Origin: Promethearchaeota archaeon
GTDB taxonomy: Archaea > Asgardarchaeota > Lokiarchaeia > Sigyniarchaeales > SOKP01
DNA: 36,125 bases
Direction of reading: 5' to 3'
NCBI GenBank assembly: GCA_004524535.1
Contig: SDNY01000029.1
Location: forward strand, 1-36,125
Notes under the pieces: model-generated
The model's input: the letters and a program-made list of their open reading frames with translations, nothing else
Database searches by the model: none
Told to the model about the DNA's origin: nothing
Part shown: positions 2,729 through 15,961 of the stretch, piece by piece
How positions within the stretch are numbered: position 1 is the first letter of the stretch
Layout of the letters: every line of letters begins with the position of its first letter
Program-made: the position numbers and the translations under genes

Positions 2729-3265
2729 TTAATACCAATCGATAAAATCATCTAATGGTCTTCTTTCTCTCGGTGATTCTCCTTTCAATTTTATGATTTC
2801 TTCATCAATTTCTCCCACAGCGATGACTCCCATGAGTTCATATTTCCCAGTATTTAATCTAAATATTTCATTAACTTGCTCTTTGTTTTTTAGAATTTCA
2901 CCAATCCATACTCCGCCTAAGTTCATAGCATGAATGCCTAAGAGAATATTCTCCATGAATGCTCCTATAGATTGAAGATCCTTGACTCTATCGTATACTT
3001 TTTCTAAATCTAAAAATATAACAAAATTAAGGTAAGCGCTTTCTATTATATTACCGCTCATCGTGAGATCTCCAAGCATTCTTTTAACAGTGGGATGAAT
3101 TACTATATTAACGCGCCATGGTTGATTATTTTTCCCTGAGGGGCTGAATTGTCCACATTCTAAGATTTGTAAGATTGTATCACGCTGAATTTTGCTGTGA
3201 ATAAAATTTCTAATACTTCTTCTTGATTTAATAAATTCTAAATATTTTTTTGATTCGTTTTCCAT
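2729..3265 (-). CDS. Nitroreductase family flavoprotein
   Basis: A 178-residue single-domain protein of the nitroreductase/FMN reductase fold. The N-terminal SRRSIRNF motif (FMN phosphate contacts) is followed by SPSGKNNQPWRV, typical of the second FMN-binding segment, and near the C terminus by GGVWIGEIL. The family binds FMN as a dimer and moves electrons from NAD(P)H to nitro compounds, quinones or metabolic intermediates. The substrate cannot be read from the sequence. The ATG at 3265 lies about 26 bp downstream of a TATA-like box, so the mRNA is probably leaderless. No redox partner lies next door. Confidence 0.88.
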   Translation of the reverse strand: MENESKKYLEFIKSRRSIRNFIHSKIQRDTILQILECGQFSPSGKNNQPWRVNIVIHPTVKRMLGDLTMSGNIIESAYLNFVIFLDLEKVYDRVKDLQSIGAFMENILLGIHAMNLGGVWIGEILKNKEQVNEIFRLNTGKYELMGVIAVGEIDEEIIKLKGESPRERRPLDDFIDWY

Positions 3266-4422: not shown

Positions 4423-7400
4423 ATGAATATTTACAGAAAAAAAGGTAAAACGGTTTTAGTTTTAATCAGTTTATTTACTATCTTGTATTTTCTAACATTT
4501 ATTTTCAATTCGGTTAATTTTATTCAGTATAACAATGAAAATGAGCAAAAATTTAAAGAGGATATATATGGAAATCCTCTTTCAGACGAAGAAGATAATA
4601 TTATATTAGATGATTTGAATTTTGAAGATAAATTACCACAACTTAGCAGCCCTATATTACAAAATTATACAATGATTGTAGGCAATCCTTATAGTTGGAT
4701 TAGTGCAGCTGGAGGCACTGAATTATTATTATTGGATAATAGCTATGTATCACGATCTTTACCATTTAGTTTTGATTTCTATAATGAGTCCTATTCAACA
4801 ATTTATTTAGGAGTAAATGGATATTTAAGTTTCACTGATTCATCACCTTCTGATTTTTCTAATGATCCGATTCCTTCAACGGATCCTGATAATACTTATC
4901 TAATCGCTCCATTTTGGGATGATTTGCTAACTGCTTGGGGTGGCGGAGGTGGAACGATTTATGTACGCTCATTTGGCACATATTGGGTTGCTGAATGGTT
5001 AAACATAGAACATATTTCTGGTCCTACTGTTGGTACATTTGAAGTTATTTTATATGATAATGGAGATATTGTTTTTAATTATGATTATATTAGTTATGTA
5101 GCTGGTGGGTATACTTGTGGATTAAATTTGGGTTTAGACACTAGTTATTACAATGAATATTCAGGTTTAACTGCATCAACAAATGATTTTTCATTACTTT
5201 TCACTCCTACAAATGATTATGCACCTCAATTATCAGCAGAGTCAGTTATACCTACAACAGGTGGTCAAACCACACAATTCAATTTTAGTGTAGAATATAC
5301 GGATCAAGACAACAATCCTCCCATTTATGTTAATGTAACTATAAATGGTACCTCTTATTCAATGAGTCAAGTAAATCCCTTAGATAATGATTATACTGAT
5401 GGTTGCATTTATCAATATATAACCTATCTACAACCAGCTGCATTTAATTATACTTATTCGTTTGAATGTAGCGATGGAGATAATTTTAATTCAACAATTA
5501 CTTACGACAATTTGGAAGTAATTCATGTAAATGATTATGGACCAGAACTTCTTAATCCACAAGTTACTCCATCAATAGGAGGGAATTCTAAATTATTCAA
5601 TTTTACAGTGAGATATTTTGATGATGATAACAATTTTCCTGTAAATATTAACATTACATTAAATAGCACGACAACATATTTGATGCTACCTGTAAATCCT
5701 CTAGATACCAATGCTATGGATGGTGTTCTTTATTATTTCAATACCACATTAGATTTTGGATATTATAGTTTTCAAATTAATTGTTCGGATGGAGTTTTCA
5801 CGAATTCAACAGGATGGATTATAGGCCCGGAAGTTAATCCTTTTTATGGACAGTGGAGCGATTTTACACTTTTCTATGATGATTTTGAACGAGCATCTCT
5901 AGGTTCAGATTGGACGCATATTGGTGGTGGATCATATGGAATTAATACCGATACTTTTCAATCACCGACTAGATCGGCTTATCATTGTTGGAATACTGGT
6001 GAAATCCAATCAAGAATATTTGACTTGAGTTTCTATCGTTATGTTAATATTTCCTATTGGGTTAGACAAGGAGATACGTCACTAGGGAGTGAACAACCCG
6101 AGACAGGTGAAGATTTCTTTGTTGAATACTATAATAATCTGGGGAGTTGGATTCCCCTTGATCAATTTTTAGGTGCTGATCCTGGTGCCACAATCTATAT
6201 ACGATCACACCAATTACCAGCTGATGCCCTACATTCCAATTTTCAAATAAGATTCAGACAGTTTGGGGGTTCTAATTCTGATTGGGATTGGTGGCATTTT
6301 GATGACGTGCGAATTGATGTTAATTCAGTACTGAATTTGCATTTACCCCTAAATAATAGTATTCACTTTAATGGTTTTATCAACTTCACATGGGACAGCT
6401 TAGATGCTTATATTGGTGCTTGTAATTATACTCTTCAAATCTCGAATCAAATAGACTTTTCAGTAATTAATATTGAAGAATTGAATATTCCAGAAACGCC
6501 TGATAATACCAGTATACTCATAGATGTAAATTTAGCGGCAGATCAATACTATTGGAGAATCCGTCCAACCTATGGTCCATTTTATCATAATTGGTCTGAT
6601 GTTTTTACATTTAACTTAACTATTAATAATTTCACTCCAAATTTATCATCTGTAGAAGTTATTCCATTATATGGTTCACAAATGACAAAATTTAACTTTA
6701 CAGTTATGTATTCTGACCAAGACAACAATCCTCCCATTTATGTTAATGTAAATATAAATGGTACATCTTATTCGATGAGTCAAGTAAATCCCTTAGATAC
6801 TGATTATACGGATGGTTGTATTTTCCAATATTTGTCTAAATTATCTCCAGCAACGTTCAATTATACTTATTCTTTTGAATGCTATGACGGGAAATATGCT
6901 AATTCTACTATCCTCTATGATAATTTAGAAGTAATAGAAATTAACCTAATTGCACCAAACCTTATTAATCCACAACTAAATCCTTCTATTGGAGTTAATT
7001 CTACTCTGTTTAATTTTTCTGTGTGGTACTATGATATAGAGAATAATCAACTCACCTATATCAATATCACAATAAATGATACTGGCACATTTTTAATGGA
7101 AAAAGCAGATCCATTGGATTTTAATGCGACAGATGGAATACTTTACTACTATACTACTACCTTACCTTGGGGTTATTATAAATTTCAAATTAATTGTTCG
7201 GATGGAGTTTTTACGAATTCAACAGGATGGTTGATTGGTCCTGAGGTTAATCCATTTTTAGGTTTGTCAGATTTGTCAACAGATCCTATTAAAATAGTGA
7301 TATTAGATTCAGCAGCGTCTGATGCTCCTCGTAATGGTATTTGGGCAAATTTGAATGCTAACTGGAATTTATATGGAACTTATAATATTTCAATAGATTA

Positions 7401-12819: not shown

Positions 12820-12909
12820 AGATAGTTAAAAATCCTCCCTTGTGAATTTTTATATTCACCATTCTAAAGTATTATATATAAATGGATAATAATTAGTAAT
12901 AGACAAAAA
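12820..12909 (+). promoter_or_regulatory. Promoter of the truncated beta-helix gene, copy of the giant-gene promoter
   Basis: Contains AGATAGTTAAAAATCC from 12820, a TATA-like TTATATATA near 12872-12880, and GTAATAGACAAAAA at 12896-12909, running into the ATG at 12909. The order and spacing match 4219-4310. The predicted transcription start lies only a few bases before the ATG, so this mRNA would be nearly leaderless. Confidence 0.55.
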
Positions 12910-13280
12910 TGAAAAGTAGAACATTCTATTTATTAGTATTTTTTGTGTTTTTAGTGTATTTTAGCATTATAATTCAAGAAAATGTTGATGATAATAATGA
13001 TATAGAGTCTAGTAGTCATAAGAGTGAAAAGAGAGATAAGAATAATAAAACCATAAAAAAAGCAGATTCATGGATACTTTCGCCATTCGTTATAGACGAC
13101 GAGAGGGGAACAGGAGATTATAATTGGTCGGAAGCTGCTGATCAAGATTGGTGTTCTGGTTCAGGTACTATAGGTGATCCATATATAATAGAAAATGTTA
13201 CTATTAATGTTGTAGGGTCAAGAAGTGGGATACATATAAAGGATTCCGATGTATATTTTATAAATATTAAACCGTACTAA
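12909..13280 (+). pseudogene. N-terminal fragment of a secreted parallel beta-helix surface protein
   Basis: A 123-residue product: signal peptide or anchor (MKSRTFYLLVFFVFLVYFS), a charged linker, then PFVIDDERGTGDYNWSEA, DWCSGSGTIGDPYIIENVTI and GIHIKDSDVYF. This is the usual opening of NosD-like right-handed beta-helix surface proteins, which are common in Asgard genomes and normally run for several hundred residues. The frame stops one strand into the helix, and I found no continuation in another frame downstream. Its end lies 7 bp from the remnant dehydratase tail at 13288. It could be a decayed gene or a short secreted peptide, and it keeps a recognisable promoter. Confidence 0.6.
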
Positions 13281-13287
13281 TTGAATA

Positions 13288-13346
13288 TTATTTTTTTTTC
13301 CGCTCCCTTAGAATTTCAATAAAACTTTCAATTTTATTTGTTATGT
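13288..13346 (-). repeat. Orphan copy of the dehydratase C-terminal tail (direct repeat, distal copy)
   Basis: Read on the minus strand this encodes ITNKIESFIEILRERKKK and a stop. The intact dehydratase gene ends VSNQIESFIEILHKRKKK. Thirteen of 18 residues match, and 20 bases are identical (13313-13332 against 14712-14731). The repeat begins over the last codons and stop of the endonuclease gene. Confidence 0.8.
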
Positions 13347-14573
13347 AAATTTTAGTATTCCATCATTATAATACAGGTCTCTCCAAGATATTTTTTTTTT
13401 CTTGATTTTAATCCCAGTTTGATTTGTAAATTCTTTAATAATATATTGAAACCTCTCATCTTTTTTTATATGATAAGGAACTACAATTAAATAATAATCC
13501 TTTCTGTTATATTGTTCAAATAATAAAACTTTTTCTTTATCTCTTCTTATTAATTTTCTCCAATCTAAATGTGAACCTTTTCCATGTGTTATTCCTAAAA
13601 ACGCTAGCCAACCATCATTTGAGTTTTCATGCTGGGCACCTTGATATTCAATCGCTAGCCTTATCAAACGATTATTTATTTTTAATATCGCAAAAAGATC
13701 TACATGAACATTGAAATGAGACAGAATCTTTGGTAGTTTTATATCTGCAAATATCTTGTATATGGGATGTTCAGTAATGAAATTTTCCGAGACTATACAA
13801 TCACTGAAAATATATCGGCAGATTTTTTGAGTTATTAACTGATTTTTGAAAATATTACAGTTTGGACAAGCAGAATCTTTATAAGCAATATAGGAATATC
13901 TTTTTAGGAATTTTTCTCCACATCTTTTACATTTCCATCTTAATTCAGCATCAGTATTTTTACCCGATTTTCTTTTTGCATTTTTCTTGGCTTGTTTAAA
14001 TTCATTTTCTGATGATAATAATTTAAGATTTCTAGATTTGCTTAATTCTAAAACGTCATCAAAGTTTATAGCTTCTTTTAAATTATTTAAAGCATTATCT
14101 AATCTACAAATATTGCACCCTCTTTTACCTATATTTTGAATTGATTTTTTATTTTCATGACCACACATATATTTCACCTTAATTTTTAAGTCTTGAATTG
14201 ATTTAGTTTTTCTTAGCTTTAAGATTTCAAACCAATTAGTTGGTGTAGTTTTTAGTTTTAGATCTGCTTTTTTACATTTTCTAACTAGATCATGATATGA
14301 TGTTATTGCTTTACCAAATATCATATCATAGATGACGTTAGCTTTAATAGGTGAGCGAAAAATATTTGTTAAAATATGAATTGAATACTTTTTCATAGTT
14401 GTAGTCGATTTTATACCAGCATTTAATCCTGCCTCGAATGTTTGGTATAATCTTTTCCCAGATCTTGAATATTCCTGTAGTTGTTGATTAATTATCGCCC
14501 TTAATTTTTTTAATTTGGGATATGTAGATTGATATCTCCATTTCTTTTTTACTTCAAAATTTGGTGAAGGCAA
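13341..14573 (-). CDS. Zinc-finger protein with Vsr/PD-(D/E)XK-like endonuclease domain
   Basis: A 410-residue basic protein. The N-terminal 130 residues are Lys-rich and helical, probably DNA-binding. Two zinc sites follow: Cys137/His139 with Cys153/Cys156, and CKRC (215, 218) with CPNC (236, 239). The C-terminal third has the restriction-endonuclease-like pattern HVDLF (Asp292), IEYQGAQH (Glu309, Gln311, His314) and a later RRDKEK helix, as in Vsr-type and related nucleases. It probably cuts DNA at a specific site. It lies in the same direction as the dehydratase operon, 113 bp behind it, and its stop overlaps the duplicated dehydratase tail. The context suggests a free-standing homing-type endonuclease; a stand-alone nicking or repair enzyme is the alternative. 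The domain call rests on motif reading only. Confidence 0.65.
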   Translation of the reverse strand: MPSPNFEVKKKWRYQSTYPKLKKLRAIINQQLQEYSRSGKRLYQTFEAGLNAGIKSTTTMKKYSIHILTNIFRSPIKANVIYDMIFGKAITSYHDLVRKCKKADLKLKTTPTNWFEILKLRKTKSIQDLKIKVKYMCGHENKKSIQNIGKRGCNICRLDNALNNLKEAINFDDVLELSKSRNLKLLSSENEFKQAKKNAKRKSGKNTDAELRWKCKRCGEKFLKRYSYIAYKDSACPNCNIFKNQLITQKICRYIFSDCIVSENFITEHPIYKIFADIKLPKILSHFNVHVDLFAILKINNRLIRLAIEYQGAQHENSNDGWLAFLGITHGKGSHLDWRKLIRRDKEKVLLFEQYNRKDYYLIVVPYHIKKDERFQYIIKEFTNQTGIKIKKKKISWRDLYYNDGILKFT

Positions 14574-14745
14574 ATAAATAACCTGAATTCATTCTTAAGG
14601 AGAAAAAGATAAATTTATTTATATTTGAAAGAACTCTGCTGGTTTTTTGAACTTGCTAAATAAAAATAGGATTAAAAAAATGATCCTTATTTTTTCTTTC
14701 TTTTATGAAGTATTTCAATAAAACTTTCAATCTGATTTGAAACTT
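13347..14745 (-). mobile_element. Candidate 1.4-kb mobile unit inserted at the dehydratase 3' end
   Basis: One endonuclease-like gene is bounded by two copies of the dehydratase tail in direct orientation. The simplest reading is an element that entered the 3' end of the dehydratase gene, supplied a replacement tail that keeps the reading frame, and pushed the original tail downstream. This is how elements that target gene 3' ends behave. I see no inverted repeats and no transposase. The alternative is decay of a tandem second dehydratase gene whose body was replaced. Boundaries are taken from the tail homology and are approximate. Confidence 0.5.
14687..14745 (-). repeat. Dehydratase C-terminal tail (direct repeat, gene copy)
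   Basis: The last 18 codons and stop of the dehydratase gene, repeated 1,399 bp away at 13288-13346. By my count 42 of 57 bases match. Between the copies lies a single-gene unit. Confidence 0.8.
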
Positions 14746-15949
14746 GAGTTTCATTCATCTTTCTAGGATCATTCATATCGCTTGTTATGATAAGGCATGG
14801 AATATCATAATCGTCGCTTAATCGTCTTTTCAAGTCGTATAGCCCACACGCATTAGGTCTGCAGGACATGTTATTATGTAAAAGAACGCCATCAATTTTC
14901 CATTCATCAACAGTTTCTTTGAATTTTTGAATGCGCGTTTTCAAGTCGAAGATATACCAGAAACTAAGCATTAATTCCGACATAGCTTCAATTGGCTTGT
15001 TTAATAACATATCTTTAGTAACATTTGGGTTCATAAATTTACTAAATGCATAAGTATAAGGTTCATATACAATTATAGCCCCATATTTTTCAAGCATGGC
15101 AAAATATTTTAAGTTGTACCAGAAGGGGATGCCTTCAAACATAAGTCTGTAGTTTTCCTGTTCCAGAGCACCAATCCCAGCATCTACACGAGCTTTTGCC
15201 TCTCGGTACATCCTTTTATATAATTTAATAGGAGCCTTCAATCCTGGCATTGTAAATAACGGAAATAACCCGCCAAAAGTATCTTTAGTAGATATGGGAC
15301 AAGGTATATTTTTTCTTAACTCATAGATCTCTTGCCAAACCATACTTAAGTCGTACGAATTCTTGGCAACTTCCTTGGATCTCTCCATATTCATTTCATG
15401 CCCCGTTACTTCTTGAATAAAATCTAAAAGTTCCCAGACCTGTTCTGCTACATATTTTTTAAAATAATTATATTGTCTATTATTGGTATTACTTACTACG
15501 TGAGGGACATCAATAGTAAAATGTGGCACATTCATTCTTTCTGCTTGTACTTGAAACCAATTTACGTGTGTATCACAAATAACATCACTGGACAACATAA
15601 AAGTAGGTTTATTTATTCCGCCTATGGTCACGTCCACATTACTTTCCACGGCTCCAATATTAGTCTTAAAATAAGAACATAAATCGTAAGAAAATCCTTG
15701 ATCCTCAGCTAGTTCAATAAATTTTTGCGAGTATTTTCGTGCAGCTGATATTGTAGCTGAATTCTCTGGAAGCATTGGTTGAACATCCATTGCATATAAT
15801 AGCTCAACAGGAGTTCCTGATGTCGCCCAAGCCGTTGGTGTTCCATCTCTAATAGCTTGTTCAATTGCAAGGAAATGTCGTCCCATTATATTTTTTAATC
15901 CTAACGTAGCTTTTAACAATTTAGATTTTTTTACATATGCTTTTGACAT
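14687..15949 (-). CDS. 2-hydroxyacyl-CoA dehydratase, subunit (HgdB/BcrB family)
   Basis: A 420-residue subunit of the 2-hydroxyacyl-CoA dehydratase/benzoyl-CoA reductase family. These iron-sulfur enzymes remove water from (R)-2-hydroxyacyl-CoA through a ketyl radical and need an ATP-driven activator. Family marks are TSGTPVELLYAMDVQP, Cys125 in VICDTHVNWFQ, Cys91, and C363/C368 in SCRPNACGLYDLK, which probably include the 4Fe-4S ligands. I place the start at the ATG at 15949, because the in-frame GTG at 15958 falls inside the Shine-Dalgarno GAGGTG. This sits just behind the stop of the preceding subunit gene, so translation is probably coupled. The last 18 codons are duplicated beyond the neighbouring endonuclease gene. 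No activator ATPase gene is nearby. Substrate unknown; amino-acid fermentation is plausible. Confidence 0.88.
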   Translation of the reverse strand: MSKAYVKKSKLLKATLGLKNIMGRHFLAIEQAIRDGTPTAWATSGTPVELLYAMDVQPMLPENSATISAARKYSQKFIELAEDQGFSYDLCSYFKTNIGAVESNVDVTIGGINKPTFMLSSDVICDTHVNWFQVQAERMNVPHFTIDVPHVVSNTNNRQYNYFKKYVAEQVWELLDFIQEVTGHEMNMERSKEVAKNSYDLSMVWQEIYELRKNIPCPISTKDTFGGLFPLFTMPGLKAPIKLYKRMYREAKARVDAGIGALEQENYRLMFEGIPFWYNLKYFAMLEKYGAIIVYEPYTYAFSKFMNPNVTKDMLLNKPIEAMSELMLSFWYIFDLKTRIQKFKETVDEWKIDGVLLHNNMSCRPNACGLYDLKRRLSDDYDIPCLIITSDMNDPRKMNETQVSNQIESFIEILHKRKKK

Positions 15950-15961
15950 TCTAAACACCTC

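What the first reader, a model, noticed from the sequence alone, without database searches (positions are those of the whole stretch)
13288..14745. Endonuclease gene bounded by duplicated tails of the dehydratase gene: a possible 3'-end-targeting mobile unit
The last 18 codons of the 2-hydroxyacyl-CoA dehydratase gene occur again just past the endonuclease-like gene, same orientation, offset 1,399 bp. The orphan tail encodes ITNKIESFIEILRERKKK-stop against VSNQIESFIEILHKRKKK-stop in the gene, with a 20-base identical run. This looks like an element that enters a protein gene at its 3' end, supplies a compatible new tail and leaves the host gene functional. A single-gene nuclease unit doing this would be a homing-like strategy without intron or intein. 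Decay of a tandem dehydratase copy is the main alternative.
Basis: partly seen in the sequence, partly recalled or inferred. Interest (0 to 1): 0.88.

Follow-up and report, generated by a model that had tools for sequence, protein, structure and literature searches.

The report
Nuclease gene with replacement gene tail
In Lokiarchaeota, a small nuclease gene has inserted itself into the end of a working gene, bringing a substitute end so the host gene stays intact and pushing the original end aside; at least five such events at four genes suggest a homing-like parasite that needs no intron or intein, known before only from fungal mitochondria.

Summary
In a Lokiarchaeota genome (G000), the tail of a HgdB-type dehydratase gene is followed by a 410-aa nuclease-like gene and then an orphan second tail. 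A close relative (G004, gene body 97% identical) has the empty site. Its single tail matches the DISTAL copy (98%, sharp junction), while the carrier gene's last ~130 nt drop to ~73% identity. The proximal tail is therefore foreign and the distal one is the displaced native tail. A second carrier (G003) shares the insertion. The same signature, checked against sister species, occurs in at least four more events: an alcohol dehydrogenase gene in this same genome, an acyl-CoA synthetase-type gene and a CooC-like ATPase gene (whole gene replaced) in G018, and the same dehydratase in G017, there with a GIY-YIG nuclease. Nuclease clades track target genes. This is what fungal mitochondrial mobile ORFs with foreign C-termini look like; I found no report of it in archaea. 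DNA cleavage and mobility are inferred, not shown. Orphan tails also occur beside other genes, so homology-assisted illegitimate recombination remains a partial rival.

The parts
14819..15958 (-). HgdB-type 2-hydroxyacyl-CoA dehydratase gene, native body (about codons 1-380)
   Evidence: PF06050 E=8e-69; 90-100% nt identity to empty-site relative G004 in 60-nt windows
14687..14818 (-). foreign replacement tail of the dehydratase gene (last ~130 nt incl. stop); in frame, gene intact
   Evidence: identity to G004 falls from 97% (1086/1119) to 72.5% (87/120), Fisher p=2.6e-18; to the other carrier G003 it stays 94%
14574..14686 (-). spacer between dehydratase stop and nuclease start, also absent from the empty site
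13341..14573 (-). nuclease-like gene, 410 aa: helical N-terminus, zinc-finger-like Cys pairs, C-terminal NVHVD...EYQGxQH...RDxxK domain; inserted DNA ends at 13344, the stop codon TAA (13341-13343) is supplied by the target
   Evidence: junction
13288..13343 (-). orphan (native) dehydratase tail, displaced; decayed in G003 (frameshift)
   Evidence: 98% to G004 tail; G003 orphan lacks the in-frame stop
13254..13287 (-). native 3' flank of the dehydratase gene still attached to the orphan tail
   Evidence: alignment to G004 runs from TAACAAATAAAATTG (13343) to about 13254

Best explanation
This is a free-standing homing-endonuclease-type mobile unit that carries a replacement 3' end for the gene it invades. 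Shown by sequence: the unit [foreign in-frame gene tail + stop + nuclease ORF] sits exactly at one point inside the dehydratase's 3' coding end; the host gene now uses the foreign tail; the native tail lies displaced and decaying on the far side; close relatives have the uninterrupted site; and the same pattern recurs with related nucleases (and one GIY-YIG nuclease) at several genes. Inferred: the nuclease cuts the uninterrupted tail at the junction (here ...CTCAAG^TAACAAATAAAATTG...). The break is repaired from a carrier allele. The left end pairs with the gene body and copies the foreign tail (co-conversion, from ~130 nt up to a whole gene). The right end pairs with, or in a first cross-species event is simply joined to, the native tail, which remains as the right-hand homology arm. 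The new tail differs at the cut site, so the carrier should be resistant. The substitute tail does the job an intron or intein does in other homing elements.
For: Empty/filled pair with shared flanks: G003 (filled) and G004 (empty) have the same downstream surface-protein gene, orphan+flank aligned over 317 nt. Step in identity at the 3' end in carriers: G000/G004 body 0.971, tail 0.725 (p=2.6e-18); G003/G004 p=1.3e-12; G017/G022 p=1.2e-14; 31 empty-empty pairs have mean difference -0.016, sd 0.066. G017: GIY-YIG protein between foreign tail and orphan; orphan+downstream 98% over 334 nt to G039's native tail. ADH gene in G000: body mostly 0.9-0.98 to G004, tail 0.56-0.65, orphan+downstream 94% over 255 nt to G004. 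ACD-type gene in G018: body ~0.93, then ~0.75 to sister G011; orphan+downstream 91% over 316 nt. CooC in G018: both flanks 91-94% to sister G011, gene itself 63-83% to G011 but mostly 82-98% to G046/G053. Same dehydratase tail hit in another genus (G047) with the related nuclease inverted. Tree: nucleases group by target: dehydratase 0.89, CooC 1.00, RadA 0.999. Enrichment of orphan tails around this family: 6/47 loci vs 4/635 genes, p=1.3e-5. Relatives of the nuclease match PHROG homing / intron-encoded endonuclease families.
Against: No cleavage or mobility data. The window's own nuclease has only weak family hits (phrog_681 E=4e-5) and no significant solved-structure match. Most loci of the family (about 40 of 47) have no detectable orphan tail, and in G044 and G061 the nuclease abuts the same target without one. 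Orphan tails also enclose non-nuclease genes (toxin-antitoxin-like pair in G020, ordinary genes in G001). The relatives are draft, largely metagenome-assembled genomes.
Confidence: 0.82

Rival explanations
1. Homology-facilitated illegitimate recombination of transferred DNA: incoming fragments pair with the gene body, cross over, and the other end is joined anywhere downstream; the nuclease is passive cargo.
For: Explains foreign tail + native orphan without nuclease activity. Orphan tails also flank TA-like genes (G020, G077) and ordinary genes (7 pairs in 793 kb of G001).
Against: Nuclease genes of this family are enclosed about 20 times more often than average genes. Related nucleases recur at the same gene in different genomes and in both orientations. 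The dehydratase tail was hit at least three times by nuclease genes (G000/G003, G047, G017).
Confidence: 0.13
2. Decay of a tandem dehydratase duplicate, the nuclease replacing or sitting in the remnant.
For: A duplicated tail alone would fit.
Against: Distal copy plus downstream flank matches the single-copy relative; the PROXIMAL tail is the odd one; no upstream remnant of a second gene; no relative with two full copies.
Confidence: 0.01
3. Site-specific integrative element (tyrosine or serine recombinase) using the gene's 3' end as attachment site.
For: Such elements are known (general knowledge) to enter gene 3' ends and supply a new tail.
Against: The 1.4 kb unit holds one ORF without a recombinase match; orphan lengths differ by target (18-124 aa), including between insertions in the same gene (18, 20 and ~43 aa in the dehydratase); conversion tracts extend upstream of the junction, up to a whole gene.
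Confidence: 0.03

Closest known systems
Fungal mitochondrial mobile ORFs with foreign C-termini (Allomyces atp6; Glomus atp6/atp9/cox2/nad3; PMC3630166, also PMC4019555)
   Same: Endonuclease ORF inserted in the 3' coding end, foreign in-frame C-terminus proximal, native C-terminus displaced downstream and most similar to close relatives.
   Different: Here in archaeal chromosomes, in metabolic and repair genes; main nuclease family is a zinc-finger + Vsr/PD-(D/E)XK-like protein rather than LAGLIDADG (one GIY-YIG case is shared); conversion can cover a whole gene; nuclease may be inverted.
Free-standing homing endonucleases of T4-like phages, intronless homing (PMC2988022)
   Same: Nuclease gene lies next to a conserved gene, patchy distribution, co-conversion of flanks.
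   Different: Phage examples sit in intergenic DNA and can cut at a distance; here the insertion is inside the coding end and brings a substitute tail, leaving an orphan tail.
Heimdallarchaeal HeimM2 element with homing-endonuclease homologue (PMC8813620)
   Same: Asgard archaeal element with a homing-endonuclease-like gene placed at one exact site.
   Different: Located between a 16S rRNA and a tRNA gene, 8 kb element; no replacement gene tail described.

Membership tests
mORF-type homing unit carrying a foreign C-terminus | endonuclease ORF inserted in the 3' coding end of a conserved gene | tested here: met
   position and empty site; nuclease assignment by motif and relatives only
mORF-type homing unit carrying a foreign C-terminus | proximal C-terminus foreign, host gene intact and in frame | tested here: met
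   identity step, Fisher p=2.6e-18, and controls
mORF-type homing unit carrying a foreign C-terminus | native C-terminus displaced downstream, like close relatives | tested here: met
   98% to G004
mORF-type homing unit carrying a foreign C-terminus | mitochondrial location, LAGLIDADG or GIY-YIG nuclease | tested here: not met
   archaeal genome; window nuclease matches neither; GIY-YIG only in G017 (E=0.0017)
free-standing homing endonuclease | site-specific cleavage of the empty allele | not testable with these tools
   needs biochemistry
free-standing homing endonuclease | carrier allele resistant to cleavage | tested here: inconclusive
   4 changes in 15 nt around the junction in the foreign tail; orphan lacks the left half-site; effect unknown
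free-standing homing endonuclease | patchy distribution with empty sites; co-conversion of flanks | tested here: met
   10 of 79 order genomes carry a relative at E<=1e-10; conversion-like tracts
EDxHD / Vsr-like or PD-(D/E)XK nuclease | fold and catalytic residues | tested here: inconclusive
   invariant D292, G312, Q314, H315, D345; relative in L204 weakly matches DUF2726; Foldseek finds no significant hit, BamHI/MspJI/PaqCI among weak ones
group I intron / intein | self-splicing element | tested here: not met
   no Rfam match; each tail has its own stop, so nothing needs splicing
integrase-driven genomic island in a gene 3' end | integrase gene in the insert | tested here: not met
   single ORF, no recombinase hit

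The most novel reading that the evidence does not exclude
Lokiarchaeota carry a widespread class of single-gene homing parasites, from at least two nuclease families, that use a substitute gene 3' end in place of an intron or intein, cross species, and replace up to whole host genes by co-conversion: the first such class in a prokaryotic chromosome.
Probability: 0.65. Interest if true: 0.85.

Novelty: new variant of a known kind. Interest (0 to 1): 0.78.

Why it matters
It would extend a rare fungal mitochondrial strategy to archaea close to the origin of eukaryotes, and give a third way, besides introns and inteins, for a homing nuclease to live inside important coding sequence without harming it. 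It also gives a concrete mechanism by which pieces of, or whole, housekeeping genes are swapped between Asgard species, which would mislead gene phylogenies. The empty/filled pairs make it directly testable.

Tried and rejected
Own-genome paralogs C155 and C43 show no tail repeats; there the domain is the C-terminus of large proteins. A DNA-level repeat scan of +/-900 bp missed the CooC case, and a later scan missed ADH; protein tails were needed. The full profile could not seed a collection scan; a smaller one found only two genomes. Viral contigs and phages: no relative. PDB by sequence and by fold: nothing significant. G039's extra 121-aa fragment and G020's toxin-antitoxin insertion were set aside as other kinds of event (no identity step in G020). 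Weak or paralog tail matches (L051, L056, L185) were rejected. Literature: no archaeal or bacterial precedent found in the open library, which does not cover most subscription journals.

Full report
OBSERVATION. The window is one contig (C84) of a 3.66 Mb genome, G000. Its relative G003 is a Lokiarchaeota MAG, TEKIR_6S. Two copies of a dehydratase gene tail flank a 410-aa ORF (13341-14573, minus strand) at an offset of 1,399 bp.

EMPTY SITE. The dehydratase gene was compared in about 40 family genomes. G003 carries the same insertion (nuclease 94% identical). G004 (gene body 97%) does not. Its dehydratase runs straight into the surface-protein gene that follows the orphan tail in G003. G004's single tail equals the distal copy of G000: alignment begins at TAACAAATAAAATTG, exactly at the insertion point, and continues past the stop codon. 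The nuclease's own stop codon is the first three bases of this target DNA.

FOREIGN PROXIMAL TAIL. Along the dehydratase gene, G000 and G004 agree at 90-100% per 60-nt window until about nt 1141, then at 70-73%. Body 1086/1119 against tail 87/120 gives p=2.6e-18. G003 against G004 gives p=1.3e-12. The two carriers agree in the tail (94%). Thirty-one pairs of genomes that both lack an insertion show a mean change of -0.016, sd 0.066, with a few outliers down to -0.21. So the tail now used by the gene arrived from elsewhere, and the orphan is the displaced original. In G003 the orphan has lost its frame.

SAME SIGNATURE ELSEWHERE. (a) G017, same dehydratase gene: a 609-aa protein with a weak GIY-YIG match (E=0.0017), inverted, lies between tail and orphan. 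The gene body is 96% to G022 with the tail at 73% (p=1.2e-14); the orphan with its downstream DNA is 98% over 334 nt to G039. (b) G000:C16, an alcohol dehydrogenase gene: most of the body is 0.9-0.98 to G004, the tail 0.56-0.65, and orphan plus downstream is 94% over 255 nt to G004. (c) G018:C66, an acyl-CoA synthetase-type gene (ADP-forming; name from general knowledge of similar sequences): body ~0.93 to sister G011, last third ~0.75, orphan plus downstream 91% over 316 nt. (d) G018:C41, a CooC-like ATPase gene: upstream flank 94% and orphan plus downstream 91% to G011, but the whole gene is 63-83% to G011 and mostly 82-98% to G046/G053, so the entire gene is foreign. Two successive displaced tails and the remnant of a second nuclease lie behind it. 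(e) G012:C120, a RadA-like gene: 124-aa orphan with a nuclease between; no close relative was available to test for a step. (f) G047, same dehydratase gene in another genus: a broken, inverted relative of the window's nuclease, then an orphan tail, then the glycosidase gene that directly follows the dehydratase in G049.

NUCLEASE AND TARGET GO TOGETHER. In a tree of 33 relatives the dehydratase-associated nucleases group (G000, G003, G047; support 0.89), as do the CooC-associated (G018, G044; 1.00) and RadA-associated ones (G012, G061; 0.999). Several sit next to the same target without a detectable orphan (G044, G061).

CONTROL. Orphan tails are not confined to nucleases. In 793 kb of G001 (635 genes) seven gene-orphan pairs were found, most around ordinary genes and one around a large protein that reads as having a GIY-YIG-like stretch. 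Genes enclosed by a pair within 3 kb: 4/635, against 6/47 loci of this nuclease family (p=1.3e-5; 5/46 without the window event, p=1.2e-4). The two searches used slightly different cut-offs, so the ratio is approximate.

THE NUCLEASE. It has zinc-finger-like Cys pairs (weak DUF4379 match) and a C-terminal domain with invariant D292, G312, Q314, H315 and D345 and near-invariant K348. AlphaFold gives pLDDT 84, with the C-terminal domain mostly above 90. Foldseek finds no significant PDB match; restriction enzymes are among the weak ones. Relatives at CooC and RadA match PHROG families annotated as HNH, homing and intron-encoded endonucleases (E down to 8e-40). Calling it a Vsr-like/EDxHD or PD-(D/E)XK nuclease is inference from motif.

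MECHANISM. Shown by sequence: precise insertion, foreign in-frame tail, displaced native tail, patchy distribution, recurrence and association with targets. Inferred: the nuclease cuts the uninterrupted tail at the junction; repair from a carrier copies tail and nuclease; the native right half is kept as the homology arm, so spread within a species needs only ordinary two-sided repair. A first cross-species event may have been one-sided. The foreign tail differs by 4 of 15 nt around the junction, which could make the carrier resistant.

KNOWN KINDS. Fungal mitochondrial mORFs have the same anatomy, including higher similarity of the displaced C-terminus to close relatives (PMC3630166; PMC4019555). 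T4 free-standing endonucleases share homing without intron and co-conversion (PMC2988022). An Asgard element with a homing-endonuclease homologue is known at an rRNA/tRNA site (PMC8813620). I found no report of replacement-tail homing units in archaea or bacteria in the open literature searched. Verdict: new variant of a known kind, well supported by comparative sequence, untested biochemically.

Noticed in passing
L035 (G020:C4) 6105-6816; L084 (G077:C66) 4617-5219: Toxin-antitoxin-like pairs (Polbeta + HepT-like in G020) also sit between a gene and a displaced copy of its tail; no identity step in G020.
   Followed up: partly
L054 (G000:C155) and L003 (G000:C43); L224 14434-18492 (G001:C9): The nuclease domain is the C-terminus of very large proteins followed by small ORFs; one shares its N-terminal scaffold with a G001 protein that seems to carry a GIY-YIG-like domain instead, as in polymorphic toxins. 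The Lrp-type gene beside the latter has an 85% identical 72-aa tail copy 6.6 kb away.
   Followed up: partly
L195 3269-4529 (G012:C120); L204 4454-5609 (G061:C255): A RadA-like gene reads in two overlapping frames at the same place in two genomes; frameshift, intron or error not resolved.
   Followed up: no
window 12909-13280: Truncated surface-protein ORF directly beyond the orphan tail in G000; G003 and G004 have a different gene there, so G000 probably suffered a later rearrangement.
   Followed up: no
L088 (G039:C217) 2782-3150: A 121-aa dehydratase fragment with stops lies beyond the native downstream acyltransferase gene and cuts into the next gene; a different kind of event.
   Followed up: partly
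L229 7025-9175 and 739 bp downstream (G001:C9): Metal-ATPase gene with a 95% identical 66-aa copy of its tail, a recent partial duplication around an 85-aa ORF.
   Followed up: no
L093 (G057:C11): Dehydratase tail of G057 is unusually divergent (0.62 vs 0.83 body to G067) with no orphan or nuclease: perhaps a conversion scar.
   Followed up: partly
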